Source: Limnochorda pilosa (GTDB lineage: Bacteria > Bacillota > Limnochordia > Limnochordales > Limnochordaceae). From it: DNA of 64,000 bases. Below are positions 7,889-54,117 of the stretch, piece after piece (position 1 is the stretch's first letter; every line of letters starts with the position of its first letter). The notes under the pieces are model-generated. The model made no database searches, was not told the DNA's origin, and saw only the letters and a program-made list of their open reading frames with translations. Made by a program: the position numbers and the translations under genes. The stretch covers positions 930,001 through 994,000 of the forward strand of contig NZ_AP014924.1 of NCBI RefSeq assembly GCF_001544015.1, in the 5' to 3' direction.

Positions 7889-9309
7889 CCGAGGTGCCCG
7901 AATCCGCGCCGGCGGCCGGTCCGGCGCCGGAGCGACCCGGCGCGAAGATCGTGGTCCGGCATCTGCACAAGGTCTTCCGCCAAGGCGGCCGCCAGGTCAT
8001 GGCCCTGCAGGACGTCTCCCTCGCCATTCCCGAGGGCGAGTTCTGCGTCCTCATCGGGCCAAGCGGGTGCGGAAAGTCCACGCTGCTGCGCATCCTCGCC
8101 GGCCTCCAGCGGCCGACGGCCGGCACGGTGGAGATCCGCCCGGGCGACGAGACAAGACCCTTGAACGCCATGGTCTTCCAGGAGCAGGGGGTGCTGCCCT
8201 GGATGACCGTGGAGCAGAACGTGGCCTTCGGGCTCGAGATGCGGAAACTCCCCAGAGCGGACGTGCGCCGACGCACCGAGCGCTATCTGGAGAAGACGGG
8301 GCTCCTGCCCTTCCGCCATGCCTACCCCAAGGCGCTTTCGGGGGGGATGAAGCAGCGGGTGAGCCTGGCCCGGGCCTTCGTCACCGAGCCGGAGATCCTC
8401 CAGGTGATCGCGGATCTGGTGCTCCAGGGGAAGTTCCTCGAGGTGCTCCTGCCCAAGGGGGTGTATGCGAGTCTCCGGCAGTTGAACGTGGCCCGGCGTG
8501 AGCTCAAGGCGAAGCTGAGCAGCGGGAAGAACAGGCTCCATGCGATTCTCGACGAGTTCTTCCCGGAGTTCACGGACGTTTTCAAGGATCCCCTCGGTAT
8601 GGGAGCTTGGTGGGTCCTGGAGCACTGCCCGTTCCCGGACGACGTGCTCGCCCTCCCGCTGGAGGAGCTAACCCAGGGTCTAGGCCAGGCCAGCAGCAAG
8701 CGCCTGGGCCGTTCCAGGGCGGAAAAGCTGTTTGAGACAGCCTGGGAGTCGATCGGCGTGCAGGAAGGGCTGGAAGGGGCCAGGATGCGCCTGAGGAGCA
8801 CTCTGGCAGAGCTCCGGGTGTACAAGGAGCAGCTGGCCGAGGTGGAGACCGCCATGGAGCGGCAGCTGGAGGCGACGGGGGTGGCAGAGTACCTGCTCAG
8901 CATCCCCGGGATCGGGATGGTGCTGGCGGCAAGTTTCCTGGCGGAGACCGGAGATCTGAGCACGTACCGGAACTGGCGGCAGCTGCGGAACCTGGCGGGG
9001 CTCAATGTGAAGCAGAACAGCTCCGGGAAGCACAAGGGCAAGACGACGATCACCAAGCGAGGCCGTCCGGGATTGCGGGAAGTGCTCTATCAAGCGGCTA
9101 TCGGCGTCGCCCAACACAGCCCGGAGCTCCGGGGGCTGTATCACTACTGGCTGAGCCGGCCACAGAATCCGCTGAAGCCGAAAGCGGCGCTGGTCGCCCT
9201 GGGACTGAAGGTGCTGCGGGTCATGTTCGCCCTGGCGACGCGCAAGGAGTACTACGACCCGGCCAAGGTGCTGGGTGACGTGCGGAAGGCGCAGCTACGC
9301 GCTGCGTGA
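7885..9309 (+). pseudogene. truncated ABC ATPase fused in frame to IS110 transposase C-terminal half
   Basis: One 474-codon open frame. Residues 1-172 are an SsuB/TauB/NrtD-type ATPase: Walker A GPSGCGKST (58-66), Q-loop FQEQGVLPW, signature LSGGMKQR, and then VTEPEILQ. The Walker B LDEP and everything after are missing. From nt 8403 the sequence is that of the IS110 transposase found complete at 52315-53589, starting in the middle of its catalytic domain (VIADLVLQGKF). Without Walker B and the H-loop the ATPase is dead; the transposase part lacks most of its DEDD domain. The fusion is a scar of IS insertion followed by deletion. Confidence 0.93.
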
Positions 9310-9316
9310 ACCTTTG
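8403..9316 (+). mobile_element. IS110-family element remnant (5' end deleted)
   Basis: Collinear with 52683-53596: the stretch GGTGATCGCGGATCTGG starts the shared part in both places, and similarity ends just past the stop codon (AACCTT). The left end and first ~120 codons of the transposase are missing. Its C-terminal Tnp_20 part (IPGIGMVLAASFLAETGDL, NVKQNSSGKHKG) is intact. Confidence 0.9.
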
Positions 9317-10171
9317 CCGTCTCGGTGGGGGAAGCAGCACTCCTCCATTCGGCCCTCGAGCCCGCAACCGAGTACTGCACGCCCCACCGGCCCTCTTCAG
9401 GCAGAACGAAGGACTGTGCGGCCATGAGCCTGCGAGACATGATAGGGTTGCCGAGGGCTGCGACGGTCGGGGATCCCCCGAGACGGCGGTGTTTGCAGGA
9501 ACGATCCATCGATCCAAAAGAACGCGAGCGAACGCGATACCATGCGAGTTCGCGAGCATGAGAGACCTAAATCGCCAACCTGGAGATAGGAGGATCAGCG
9601 CCGTGCGCGCCACATCCGCGAGAGGGTTGCCGCGGCTCGCGTCGATCCAGTCGATGATGACCGGGTCCCGGTCGGTGAGGATCACATTGGCGGGATGAAA
9701 GTCGCCGTGGCAGAGTCGGTCACCGCCAGGCAGCCGAGCCATCGCGCCGAGTACGGCCTCGCGCTCCGCCTGCGAGAGCGGCGCGCAGCGGGCGATCTTC
9801 TCCCGCAGGAGCGTACGCTGATCGTGCAACCCGGGCGATCCTTCGTGCGCGTGCAGGTCGAGGTGCACCTCAGCCAGCCGAAGGGCCATCGGCTCGATCG
9901 TATCAGGGTCGCGCAGCACGGTCTCCATCATCGACAAACCGTCCACCCGTTCGAGGACAAGGCCCAGTCGTCCATCGAGCTCGATCCTGCTGCCGACGGC
10001 CGGTACGGGGAGCCCGATGGCGTGAGCCGCGGACGTCTTCCGCTGCTCGGACTCTACCGTCCGCGGCGAGGTGCCCGGACGGTAGAGCTTGAGGACACGG
10101 CCCTCGCCCCAAGGGTGGACGTCCGCTGTTCGGCCGGACGCGATGGGGTTAGCTGGTTCCCGTGAGCTCAT
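9221..10171 (-). CDS. APH/choline-kinase-like phosphotransferase, 3' end replaced
   Basis: Frame of 316 codons. Residues 1-~200 form a phosphotransferase fold: Brenner motif HGDFHPAN (155-162) and Mg-binding IIDWIDA (172-178). After about residue 205 the sequence loses family character, and the frame ends inside the IS110 remnant on the opposite strand. The natural C-terminus was therefore lost at the junction near 9317. Substrate unknown (aminoglycoside- or sugar-type kinases share this fold). Probably inactive or altered. Confidence 0.7.
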   Translation of the reverse strand: MSSREPANPIASGRTADVHPWGEGRVLKLYRPGTSPRTVESEQRKTSAAHAIGLPVPAVGSRIELDGRLGLVLERVDGLSMMETVLRDPDTIEPMALRLAEVHLDLHAHEGSPGLHDQRTLLREKIARCAPLSQAEREAVLGAMARLPGGDRLCHGDFHPANVILTDRDPVIIDWIDASRGNPLADVARTALILLSPGWRFRSLMLANSHGIAFARVLLDRWIVPANTAVSGDPRPSQPSATLSCLAGSWPHSPSFCLKRAGGACSTRLRARGPNGGVLLPPPRRQRFTQRVAAPSARHPAPWPGRSTPCASPGRT

Positions 10172-14963: not shown

Positions 14964-15527
14964 ACCCCATCCCCTGGCCGCGCGGAGGGCGCTGTCCGGC
15001 GGAAGGTCCATCGCCTTCATCTCCCGGACCAAGAACTGGGCAAGGGCGACGAGGAGGTACGTGACGGCGATGACGGTGTAGGCGCCCCTCAGGCCGGTCG
15101 CCTCCGCGGCGTACCCGCCGATCATGGGCCCCAACGGCATGGCCATCCAGGCCAGGGCTCTCGTCATGCCGAAGACCCTGGCCCGCATCTCCAGGGGCAC
15201 CCTCTCCTGCATGACGGTGTAGATGATCGGGTTGAGCGGGCCGCTGCCCAACCCCATCAACACGGCCAGCCCGATCATGAACGGCAGGGGCGGCAGTTGG
15301 GCCAGCGCCAGTTGCGGTACAGCAGCCACGAGCCAGGCGGTGAGGTAGACCCACCGCCGGGAGAAGCGGGGTCCGACGGCGGCGTAGAGGGCGGCTCCGA
15401 CGATGGAGCCCGCGGCGTGCGCGGAGATGAGGGCACCCAGCGCTTTATGTTGCGGCCCGGTCACTTGCTCGCCCCCCTGGGCGGTCCCGTCTTGCGACGG
15501 CGGGGACTTTATCCTCGGAGCTTTCAC
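14958..15527 (-). pseudogene. cassette 12: MFS transporter, C-terminal half only
   Basis: 189 codons, about five helices (AAGSIVGAALYAAVGPRF, PFMIGLAVLMGLGSGPLNPI, MRARVFGMTRALAWMAMPLGP). This is the back half of a 12-helix major facilitator of the macrolide/siderophore-exporter (MFS_3) kind. The front half is absent and the GTG at 15527 has no RBS. Broken cassette; the adjoining site C is also degenerate. Confidence 0.75.
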
Positions 15528-15616
15528 TGAAGCGGTTGCCCTGCCTTCAGCGTCCGATTCGCTACGTGGCTATCAGGCTGTTGCCACGGCCGATCCTTCC
15601 CCGGCTGGAGATAGGT

Positions 15617-20515: not shown

Positions 20516-20609
20516 GCCTAACGTTCTGCCGTATCAGCGGCGCCGACGATCAGCGGTCAATCAACGCAGCTCAACTACCTACGGCGTCCGCTGAATACGC
20601 TTGTTGGGC
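20516..20609 (-). repeat. attC K
   Basis: GCCTAAC (20516-20522) to GTTGGGC (20603-20609), 94 bp; arms as in J and M. Confidence 0.92.
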
Positions 20610-23490: not shown

Positions 23491-24424
23491 CTACAACGAT
23501 TCCACCAGGCTCCGGACGCCCCGGCCGCCGCGGTTCAGGAAATGGGTGTAGATCATGCTGGTTCGTACGTCCTTGTGCCTAGGAGCTCCTGGACTGTACG
23601 GATGTCGTGCCATCGGCCAGCAGGTGCGTCGCGAAGGAATGACGGAACGCGTGACAGGAGGCTCGCTTGGTCAGCCCGGCGCGCCGGACCGCCTGGGCCA
23701 CGGCCTTTTGGACCAGGGATCCGTGCATGTGGTGCCGGCCCTGCTGGCCCGTCCTTGGATTCCTCCAGCGCCTTGCCTGCGGGAAGACCCACCGCCAGCG
23801 CCAGTCCGCGGCTGCGCGCGGGTACTTTGGTGCGACGGCCTGCGGCAGTTCGACCTGGCCCCAGCCCTCGCGCAGGTCCCGTTCGTGGGTCGCTTTGACG
23901 GCGCGTAGATGCCTTCGGAGGGGCTCTTTGAGCTCCTCCGGAAGCATCGTCATCCGATCCTTGGCCCCCCTGCCGTCCCTAACCAGGATCTCGCCTCGGG
24001 CGACGTCGATATCTTGGACCCACAGGCTGAGGCACTCGGTCAGCCGGAGCCCGGAGCGATACATCAGCGAGGCGATGAGCCCGTAGGCTCCTTCGAGCTC
24101 GGCGAGGACGGCCTTCACTTCCTCCTTCGTGAGGACAACAGGGAGCCGGCGCGGTTTTCGGGCCCGGATCACGGACCCCAGGTCGCCCAGGTCACGGCGG
24201 AGCACGTTTCGGTAGAGGAAGAGCAGGGCACTAAGGGCCTGATTCCGGGTGGAAGCGCTCACCTTCTCGTGGGTGGCCAGGTGGCTCAGGAACGCGTTGA
24301 TCTCTGCTTCCCCCATCTCCGCCGGATGGCGCAGGTTCTGAAAGCGGATGAACCGTCTCACCCACAAGCAGTAGCTCTCTTCGGTCCTTTGGCTGTAGTG
24401 GCGTGAACGGAGCGCTTCTCTCAA
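23491..24424 (-). pseudogene. intI: integron integrase IntI, frameshifted at the C-terminus
   Basis: Tyrosine recombinase with the integron-specific insert (APKYPRAAADWRWRWVFPQA and GRHHMHGSLVQKAVAQAVRR). Catalytic Arg in SGLRLTE and the HAFRHSFATHL box are present. The frame then breaks: reading resumes in a second frame at DIRTVQELL and in a third at [20 protein letters not shown], ending VRSLVESL, stop 23493-23491. Each break needs one missing base, and both fall at GGCAC where GGCCAC would restore the frame. As written the protein lacks the GH histidine and the Tyr nucleophile. TTG 24424 is the first usual start, but homology (PKLLDQLREAL) begins 8 codons earlier. Confidence 0.92.
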
Positions 24425-24810
24425 CTGATCAAGCAGCTTGGGCTTGGGTATTCGGTTGCCGGTGGTGTCGTTACGGCCTTTGTCGGCACTGCGGACGGCG
24501 CTGGAGTTCAGGGGTACGCTGCCCGTGGCGCCAGGACGTGGTACGTGCCTTGGAAGCTCCGTCTAGAGGTCGCTCCTTCCAACCGGAGCCTTGCTGCTTC
24601 ACCGGACCCACCTCGACTCTCGGGCCCCATGGGCATCGCAGGCTCCGCGGAGCGGAGGAACCTACGGGCGATGGTTCGACAGGAAGGCGGCCAATCCTTC
24701 CAATATCTGACCCTCTTCGGTGCTGGTCGATAACTTCGAACTACGACGGTAGCGGACGACCGAGGATCACCGAATCACCAGGCCTCGTCATCGGGTTCCC
24801 GCACCTGGAT
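24425..24810. other. upstream of intI, no gene seen
   Basis: About 390 bp with no frame of protein character on either strand beyond the integrase N-terminal extension (to ~24450). No clear LexA box or good promoter for intI was found. Confidence 0.5.
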
Positions 24811-51937: not shown

Positions 51938-52237
51938 CTGCATCTGACCGGGCGGGAGGAGACGGAAGCGTTCCTGGCCTTCCGGACCTACTACGTCTTC
52001 CGGGCGCGGTTCTGCAACCCCAGGAAGGGCAACGAGAAAGGGCTGGCGGAGAACCTGGTGGGCTACGCCCGGCGCAACTTCCCGGTCCCCGTCCCAGAGG
52101 TCCCTTCGACGGAGCCGGAAGGGCTGGAAGAGCTGAACGGATCGCTGCTTGAGGCCTGCGTGGCGAACCGGAGGCGCACGCGTGCCGGGGAAAGCCGGAT
52201 GGTGGGCGAGCTCTATGAGCAGTCCTGTGAGGTTTGA
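51938..52237 (+). mobile_element. IS21-family IstA transposase, C-terminal fragment
   Basis: 100 codons ending at TGA 52235-52237: FRTYYVFRARFCNPRKGNEK, GLAENLVGYARRNFPVPVPE, EELNGSLLEACVANRRR. This is the conserved end of the IstA integrase domain; everything upstream and istB are missing. Confidence 0.85.
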
Positions 52238-53597
52238 TGGGGGAAGTTGAAGAAGTGAGGACCCACCGGCTATGCTGGAAGCGGCAACCAAACCAGCACC
52301 GGGAGGCCCTCACAGTGAAAACCGATGAGAAGATCACGCTTGTTCGCTCCAACACCCTGATCGTGGCGGTGGAGGTGGTCAAGAAGACCCACTACGCACG
52401 CGTCATCGATCAGGTGGGGCGAACTGTCGAGGAGCCGTTTGAGTTCCACAACGGCGACGAAGGGTTTCGCCGCCTGGAGAGGCGGCTCCTACGCCGGCAA
52501 GCAGAAATCGGCGCGGAGAGGGTGATCATCGGGATGGAGCCCACCGGCCACTACTGGAAGCCGCTGGCCTACTGGCTGGTCGGCAGGGGCTACACCGTGG
52601 TGCTGGTCAACCCGATAATCACGAAGCGTCCCAAGGAGGACCGTGACAACAGCCCGAGCAAGACGGACCCGAAGGACACGGGGGTGATCGCGGATCTGGT
52701 GCTCCAGGGGAAGTTCCTCGAGGTGCTCCTGCCCAAAGGGGTCTACGCGAACCTGCGACAGTTGAACGTGGCCCGGCGTGAGCTCAAGGCGAAGCTGAGC
52801 AGCGGGAAGAACAGGCTCCATGCGATTCTCGACGAGTTCTTCCCGGAGTTCACGGACGTTTTCAAGGATCCCCTCGGCATGGGAGCTTTGTGGGTCCTGG
52901 AGCACTGCCCGTTCCCGGACGACGTGCTGCCTTTCCCGTTCGAGGAGCTCATCGGGGGTCGACGCCAGGCCAGCAGGAACCGTGTGGGCCGAGCCAGAGC
53001 GGAAAAGCTGTTCGAGACAGCCTGGGAGTCGGTGGGCGTGCAGGAAGGGCTGGAAGGGGCCAGGGTTCGCCTGAGGAGTACTCTGGTGGAGCTCCGGGTG
53101 TACAAGGAGCAGCTCGTCGAGGTCGAGGCCGCCATGAAGCGGCAGTTGGAGGCGACGGGGGTGGCAGAGTACCTGCTCAGCATCCCCGGGATCGGGATGG
53201 TGCTGGCGGCAGGCTTCCTGGCCGAGACCGGGGATCTGAGCGCGTATCGGAACTGGCGGCAGTTGCGGAACCTGGCGGGGCTCAACGTGAAGCAGAACAG
53301 CTCCGGGAAGCACAAGGGCAAGACGACGATCACCAAGCGAGGCCGCCCGGGATTGCGGGAAGTGCTCTATCAAGCGGCTATCGGCGTCGCCCAACACAGC
53401 CCAGAGCTCCGGGAGCTGTATCACTACTGGCTGAGTCGGCCACAGAATCCGCTGAAGCCGAAAGCGGCCCTGGTCGCCCTGGGACTGAAGGCGCTGCGGA
53501 TCATGTCCACCTTGGCGACCCGTAAGGAGTACTACGGCCCGGCCAAGGTGCTGGGTGAGGTACGGAAGACGCAACTGCGCGCCGCATAAACCTTAAC
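52238..53597 (+). mobile_element. IS110-family insertion sequence, complete gene
   Basis: Between the istA fragment and a large palindrome. 77 bp precede the transposase start and ~8 bp follow its stop, so neither side has room for the ~150-200-nt bridge RNA region unless it overlaps the flanking sequences. No terminal inverted repeats, as usual for IS110. Confidence 0.8.
52315..53589 (+). CDS. IS110-family transposase (DEDD/RuvC-like)
   Basis: 424 residues from GTG 52315 (GGGAGG 8 nt upstream). N-terminal DEDD domain: first acidic position is E20 in IVAVEVVKKTH, where Asp is usual; then IGMEPTGHYWKPL (Glu) and SKTDPKDTGVIADLV (two Asp). C-terminal Tnp_20 domain with LLSIPGIGMVLAAGFLAETG and NVKQNSSGKHKGKT containing the serine needed for strand exchange. 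RNA-guided recombinase family. Full length but with a D-to-E change that may weaken it. Confidence 0.95.
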   Translation: MKTDEKITLVRSNTLIVAVEVVKKTHYARVIDQVGRTVEEPFEFHNGDEGFRRLERRLLRRQAEIGAERVIIGMEPTGHYWKPLAYWLVGRGYTVVLVNPIITKRPKEDRDNSPSKTDPKDTGVIADLVLQGKFLEVLLPKGVYANLRQLNVARRELKAKLSSGKNRLHAILDEFFPEFTDVFKDPLGMGALWVLEHCPFPDDVLPFPFEELIGGRRQASRNRVGRARAEKLFETAWESVGVQEGLEGARVRLRSTLVELRVYKEQLVEVEAAMKRQLEATGVAEYLLSIPGIGMVLAAGFLAETGDLSAYRNWRQLRNLAGLNVKQNSSGKHKGKTTITKRGRPGLREVLYQAAIGVAQHSPELRELYHYWLSRPQNPLKPKAALVALGLKALRIMSTLATRKEYYGPAKVLGEVRKTQLRAA

Positions 53598-53742
53598 TGC
53601 TCCGATGCCAAGAAGTGGTGCCAGTAGAACGGTAACATATGGGGGACCTTCCTGGGGTCTCGGAGGCCGTAAGCTGAAGGGACCCCAGGAAGGGCCCCCC
53701 TATCTCACTGTTCCCCTGGAACCACTTCTTGGCATCGGAGCA
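53598..53742. repeat. 145-bp giant palindrome (62-bp arms, 21-bp loop)
   Basis: Left arm 53598-53659 and right arm 53681-53742 are the same length and pair with 8 mismatches; the outer 22 bp (TGCTCCGATGCCAAGAAGTG-GT) and the inner CCTTCCTGGGGTC are perfect. It interrupts the minus-strand gene at 53743-53972. Candidate MITE, REP-like IS110 target, or IS-associated structured RNA. No target duplication is evident. Confidence 0.9.
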
Positions 53743-53972
53743 GGTGACCCGTGCTTCACGTGTGGGTCCCGAGCAGCGGCCCCTTTCTGCCAATGCGTCC
53801 GCTGTACCTTGAACTGCACATGGGCGGCAGCAGCCATCACGGCCGCCTCCAAGCAATGGAAACCGTACAAGGATAGGTCGCTCCGATCGGTCGGTTGATC
53901 CCAGGCTGTCTGAACTCGGTCCAGGTGACGTCTGGCAACTCCGTACTGTGACTTCGCGTCTGGGGTACCCAT
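53743..53972 (-). pseudogene. HEPN-like protein truncated by the palindrome
   Basis: ATG 53972 with AGGAGGTG 9 nt upstream. YGVARRHLDRVQTAWDQPTD, LSLYGFHCLEAAVMAAAAHV, RTHWQKGAAARDPHVKHGSP is the helical front of a small protein usually continuing ~50 residues (HGLPD...LL..LNEARK). The frame enters the palindrome at 53742 and loses its tail. Confidence 0.75.
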
Positions 53973-54117
53973 AGCTGCCCTCACCTCCTGTCTACCCTTC
54001 CACCATTATACCTGCTTCTACCGTATCCCGGCCTTACCTGGCTCAAGTCTCTCGGTAGTACCGACGGGCGACGGAGATGAGTTGGGCGCGGCCATGGGTC
54101 ACCGCGGACTCCCGGTC

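What the first reader, a model, noticed from the sequence alone, without database searches (positions are those of the whole stretch)
53598..53742. 145-bp giant palindrome between an IS110 element and a truncated gene
62-bp arms with 54 matches and a 21-bp loop; outer 22 bp perfect. It begins 9 bp after the transposase stop and cuts a HEPN-like gene. Options: a MITE, a REP-type target chosen by IS110, or part of the IS (structured guide RNA). IS110/IS1111 elements are known to favour palindromic REP targets and to use a bridge RNA.
Basis: partly seen in the sequence, partly recalled or inferred. Interest (0 to 1): 0.72.

Follow-up and report, generated by a model that had tools for sequence, protein, structure and literature searches.

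The report
Relic palindromic repeat beside broken IS110
A real 147-bp DNA hairpin sits where a jumping gene has lost its tail; it is most likely the last full-length copy of a small, worn-out family of mobile palindromic repeats, not part of the jumping gene and not its landing site.

Summary
The palindrome is real: 53597-53743, 63-nt arms, 55 of 63 complementary, 21-nt loop, outer 23 bp perfect. It far exceeds chance. It is not part of the IS110 element: this genome's other IS110 copies that keep a right end, and relatives elsewhere, have a conserved 3' non-coding region (NCR) after tnp instead. The window copy lost that region 5 nt after its stop codon, so the palindrome abuts a truncation, not an IS end. 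This undercuts both the 'structured guide RNA' and the 'REP-type target' readings. It is not an integron attC (no R boxes, whereas true attCs occur in the same genome) and not a canonical terminator (no T tract). The arm sequence recurs at three other places in the 3.8-Mb genome: one 96-bp partial copy including the loop (78% identity) and two 27-31-bp end fragments. No credible homologue was found in about 450 other genomes, plasmids, phages or viral contigs. Best reading: sole full-length survivor of a degenerate MITE/ERIC-type palindromic repeat family at a rearrangement scar. Mobility is inferred; no target duplication or partner transposase was found. Interest is low to moderate.

The parts
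53597..53659 (+). left arm of the palindrome, 63 nt; outer 23 bp perfect; its first 27-31 bp recur at three other loci
53660..53680 (+). 21-nt spacer; matches the consensus CGGAGGCSGTRRGCTGAAG shared with the partial copy at 506535-506553(-)
53681..53743 (+). right arm of the palindrome, 63 nt, 55 of 63 complementary to the left arm
52219..53594 (+). IS110-family element (about from GAGCAGTCCTGT to ACCTT; tnp start probably about 52312, stop 53587-53589), lacking its 3' NCR and right end
53745..53984 (-).

Best explanation
The palindrome is the only full-length copy left of a small family of non-autonomous palindromic repeats (MITE/ERIC-like) in this genome. Such units are moved in trans by a transposase that recognises the inverted ends; here the terminal 27-31 bp (TGCTCCGATGCCAAGAAGTGGTGCCAG) are the recurring part. 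At this site it lies at a rearrangement scar that removed the 3' NCR and right end of an IS110-family element. Shown: the palindrome, its dispersed partial copies, and the truncation of IS110. Inferred: past mobility, the partner transposase (not found), and that the unit, or a deletion next to it, caused the truncation.
For: Palindrome far beyond chance. Arm consensus at exactly four loci (five occurrences), all with 0 mismatches to the consensus drawn from them, one further match only at the 3-mismatch limit, reversed control pattern 0; with the window arm alone as query, 3 other loci at up to 3 mismatches, control 0. The 506-kb copy is homologous over arm, loop and start of the right stem (96 bp, 78%), so the palindromic unit is older than this site. 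At 453 kb the end fragment lies between a transaldolase-like stop and a 5'-truncated acyl-CoA-dehydrogenase-like ORF. IS110 here has lost a 3' NCR that its relatives keep.
Against: Only one full-length copy, no target-site duplication, no partner transposase with matching ends, no copy in other genomes. The two short copies (27-31 bp) could be terminal repeats of some other, lost IS. All partial copies resemble the left arm, unexplained (small numbers).
Confidence: 0.55

Rival explanations
1. The four end sequences are terminal inverted repeats of a larger insertion sequence, now lost; the palindrome is its two ends brought together by internal deletion, a fossil rather than a propagating MITE.
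For: Two loci keep only the outer 27-31 bp.
Against: The 506-kb copy shares the loop and the start of the right stem, so the joined form is not a private deletion at this site. No IS with these ends was found in the genome.
Confidence: 0.2
2. A resident structured RNA or regulatory hairpin (for instance protecting or regulating a transcript) with a few decayed paralogues.
For: Very stable fold; loop better conserved than arms; inner stem of the second copy keeps 13 of 15 comparable pairs with one compensatory change.
Against: The second copy does not fold into the hairpin; no excess covariation over shuffles; no credible Rfam match; no promoter-like site; not conserved in relatives.
Confidence: 0.12
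3. Canonical terminator or integron attC site.
For: Lies just after a stop codon; the genome really carries integron integrases and attCs.
Against: No T tract. No RYYYAAC or GTTRRRY box on either strand of 53551-53800. The genome's true 94-bp attCs look unrelated.
Confidence: 0.04
4. The palindrome is part of IS110 (guide RNA), or the target that IS110 chose.
For: Adjacency; IS1111/IS110 members are known to target REP, attC and Tn21 ends and to use NCR-derived guide RNA (PMC11187229).
Against: Other copies and relatives have a different, conserved 3' NCR there; the right end is missing, so the palindrome does not touch an IS terminus; no palindrome near 29 relatives.
Confidence: 0.05

Closest known systems
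ERIC / RU-1 (127 bp) and RU-2 (168 bp) enterobacterial small mobile repeats
   Same: Similar length, intergenic, described as MITE-like small mobile sequences (PMC2759123 abstract); near-complete palindromy of ERIC is from my own knowledge.
   Different: Those have many copies; here one full copy and three relics. No sequence comparison with them was run.
REP elements targeted by IS110/IS1111-type elements (ISPa11, IS621, ISPpu10)
   Same: A palindrome next to an IS110-family transposase gene.
   Different: REPs are 20-40 bp and high copy (PMC3733652 abstract); this is 147 bp, low copy, and beside a truncated IS rather than at an IS end.
Integron attC sites
   Same: Imperfect palindrome just after a stop codon, in a genome with two integron integrases.
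   Different: No R boxes; unrelated to this genome's own 94-bp attCs.

Membership tests
MITE / palindromic mobile repeat | Short non-coding unit with terminal inverted repeats | tested here: met
MITE / palindromic mobile repeat | Several dispersed copies in the genome | tested here: inconclusive
   one full copy, one 96-bp partial copy, two end fragments
MITE / palindromic mobile repeat | Target-site duplication or empty site | tested here: inconclusive
   no duplication visible in the flanks; no orthologous empty site available
MITE / palindromic mobile repeat | Autonomous partner with the same ends | tested here: not met
   none in the own genome; a partner in another genome was not excluded
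IS110 element component | Present at the same place in other copies of the IS | tested here: not met
IS110/IS1111 target (REP type) | Abuts a true IS terminus | tested here: not met
   3' NCR and right end absent
attC | R'' RYYYAAC and R' GTTRRRY boxes | tested here: not met
   positive control from the same genome
Intrinsic terminator | Hairpin followed by a T tract | tested here: not met
   flanks read

The most novel reading that the evidence does not exclude
A lineage-restricted, undescribed palindromic element whose conserved loop and hairpin have a function (protein-bound cruciform or RNA) and which promotes deletions of neighbouring DNA, having disarmed an RNA-guided IS110 by removing its guide region.
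Probability: 0.07. Interest if true: 0.45.

Novelty: new member of a known kind. Interest (0 to 1): 0.22.

Why it matters
Mostly as a caution: a striking palindrome beside an IS110 gene invites a guide-RNA or REP-target reading, but comparing IS copies shows that it marks a truncation. If the repeat family proves real and mobile, it would be a small addition to palindromic repeats in a deep Firmicutes lineage. The conserved 3' NCR of this IS110 subfamily is the more useful by-product.

Tried and rejected
IS110 guide RNA and IS110 target. attC. Terminator. Known RNA family: only sub-threshold chance hits. Coding origin of the arms: no 3-base periodicity of substitutions by eye, not tested formally. 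Exact 21-mer in an Aquiluna contig (L043) and hits in G041, G198, G202 and G436: single-arm matches without a partner arm, judged chance. Terminal repeats of the nearby ISL3-type element: no matching ends seen. IS1380-type elements lie near two of the four loci but on different sides of the end. Sequencing hairpin artefact: unlikely, since the arms differ at 8 positions and the genome is one contig.

Full report
Observation. The inverted repeat exists at 53597-53743 with 63-nt arms, 87% complementary, and a 21-nt spacer. It is the only one in the window scoring 14 or more under +1/-2 scoring; it scores 39, against at most 13 in ten first-order Markov sequences of the same length. Its RNA fold is -113.4 kcal/mol, z = -13.3. 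The arms differ at 8 positions, so a hairpin artefact of sequencing is unlikely. The genome is a single contig of 3,817,036 bases. Its size, and the published statement that the only complete Firmicutes integron is in Limnochorda pilosa HC45 (PMC9024848), make L. pilosa the likely source; that is inference.

Relation to IS110. The transposase is a genuine IS110-family enzyme (PF01548, PF02371; NF033542, 214 bits over a cut-off of 140). Three other partial copies lie in the genome. Homology between copies on the right side ends at window 53594, 5 nt after the stop. Beyond it, the copies at window 9314 and at 2443486 do not have the palindrome. They have a region that aligns with the 3' NCR of relatives from four other genomes (TTGGGTGGGGGAAGC...CCCCACCCGCCC...AGGCAGAACGAAGGA...GATAGGGT). 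Copies within genomes G436 and G418 define sharp ends: about 111-117 nt of 5' NCR and about 333-347 nt of 3' NCR after the last aligned codon. The window copy keeps the left end (GAGCAGTCCTGT, shared with the copy at 1050378) but has lost this 3' NCR and the right end; nothing similar to that NCR lies elsewhere in the window apart from the copy at 9309-9660. The palindrome therefore abuts a truncation. By analogy with IS1111 and some IS110 members, whose guide (seekRNA) comes from the NCR (PMC11187229), this copy is probably guide-less; no guide RNA was demonstrated here. In 29 relatives with flanks of up to 1.5 kb, no palindrome of score 18 or more exists.

Other copies of the palindrome. A whole-genome search with the arm consensus finds four loci: this one (both arms), 506588-506614(-), 453612-453638(+) and 2394851-2394877(+). 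The only further match is at the 3-mismatch limit, and the reversed control pattern gives none. The 506-kb locus is a 96-bp copy, 78% identical, containing arm, loop and the start of the right stem. The other two keep only 27-31 bp; at 453 kb the sequence lies between the stop of a transaldolase-like gene and a 5'-truncated acyl-CoA-dehydrogenase-like ORF (names read from the translation, not scanned). Outside this genome nothing credible was found: 60 relatives, 398 genomes of the phylum (the sets overlap), viral contigs, plasmids, phages. An exact 21-mer in an Aquiluna contig and four weak hits are single-arm matches.

Structure versus history. The second copy keeps 13 of 15 comparable inner-stem pairs with one compensatory change, but the whole structure shows no excess covariation over shuffles, and that copy does not fold into the hairpin. 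Two sequences are too few to decide. No Rfam family matches credibly, and there is no sigma-70-like promoter or T-tract terminator nearby.

attC test. The genome carries two integron integrases over the TIGR02249 cut-off, one of them in this window, and 94-bp attC sites with correct boxes at window 20516-20609 and near the second integrase. The palindrome has no R' or R'' box and does not resemble them. Two stricter scans of mine missed these attCs; the looser one found them.

Conclusion. The best-supported reading is a low-copy, decayed palindromic repeat (MITE-like) at a rearrangement scar that also removed the 3' NCR of IS110. Dispersal and truncation are shown; transposition, the partner enzyme and the order of events are inferred. 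The region has been rearranged elsewhere too: another IS110 copy appears cut in two by a roughly 111-kb inversion. The finding is real but ordinary in kind.

Noticed in passing
window 23497-24436 (-) and 20516-20609; G000:C1:1041228-1042172 (-); L143:14212-14305 and 15372-15465: Two integron integrases over the TIGR02249 cut-off, the window one apparently frameshifted, with 94-bp attC sites of one sequence family; matches the published report of the only complete Firmicutes integron, in L. pilosa.
   Followed up: partly
window 8403-9314 and G000:C1:1049931-1050378 (-): Complementary halves of one IS110 copy (break at IS nt 448/450), each fused to one half of a single ABC-type ATPase gene (...FVTEPEIL | LMDEPFSALDE...): signature of a reciprocal inversion of about 111 kb.
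   Followed up: partly
window 9309-9500; L109-L128: Conserved 3' NCR of this IS110 subfamily, a candidate guide-RNA region, kept by the copy with a truncated tnp and lost by the copy with an intact tnp in the same window.
   Followed up: partly
window 15445-15607 (-): Rfam group-II-D1D4-4 match, 72.6 bits: a group II intron.
   Followed up: no
L072:6809-6881: A second long palindrome (25-nt arms, 96% complementary, 23-nt loop) at the edge of an ISL3-type transposase pseudogene about 3 kb from the 506-kb partial copy.
   Followed up: no
window 51938-52222 (+): ORF fragment that reads like the C-terminal part of an IS21 IstA transposase, directly left of the IS110 left end; Pfam gave no hit.
   Followed up: partly
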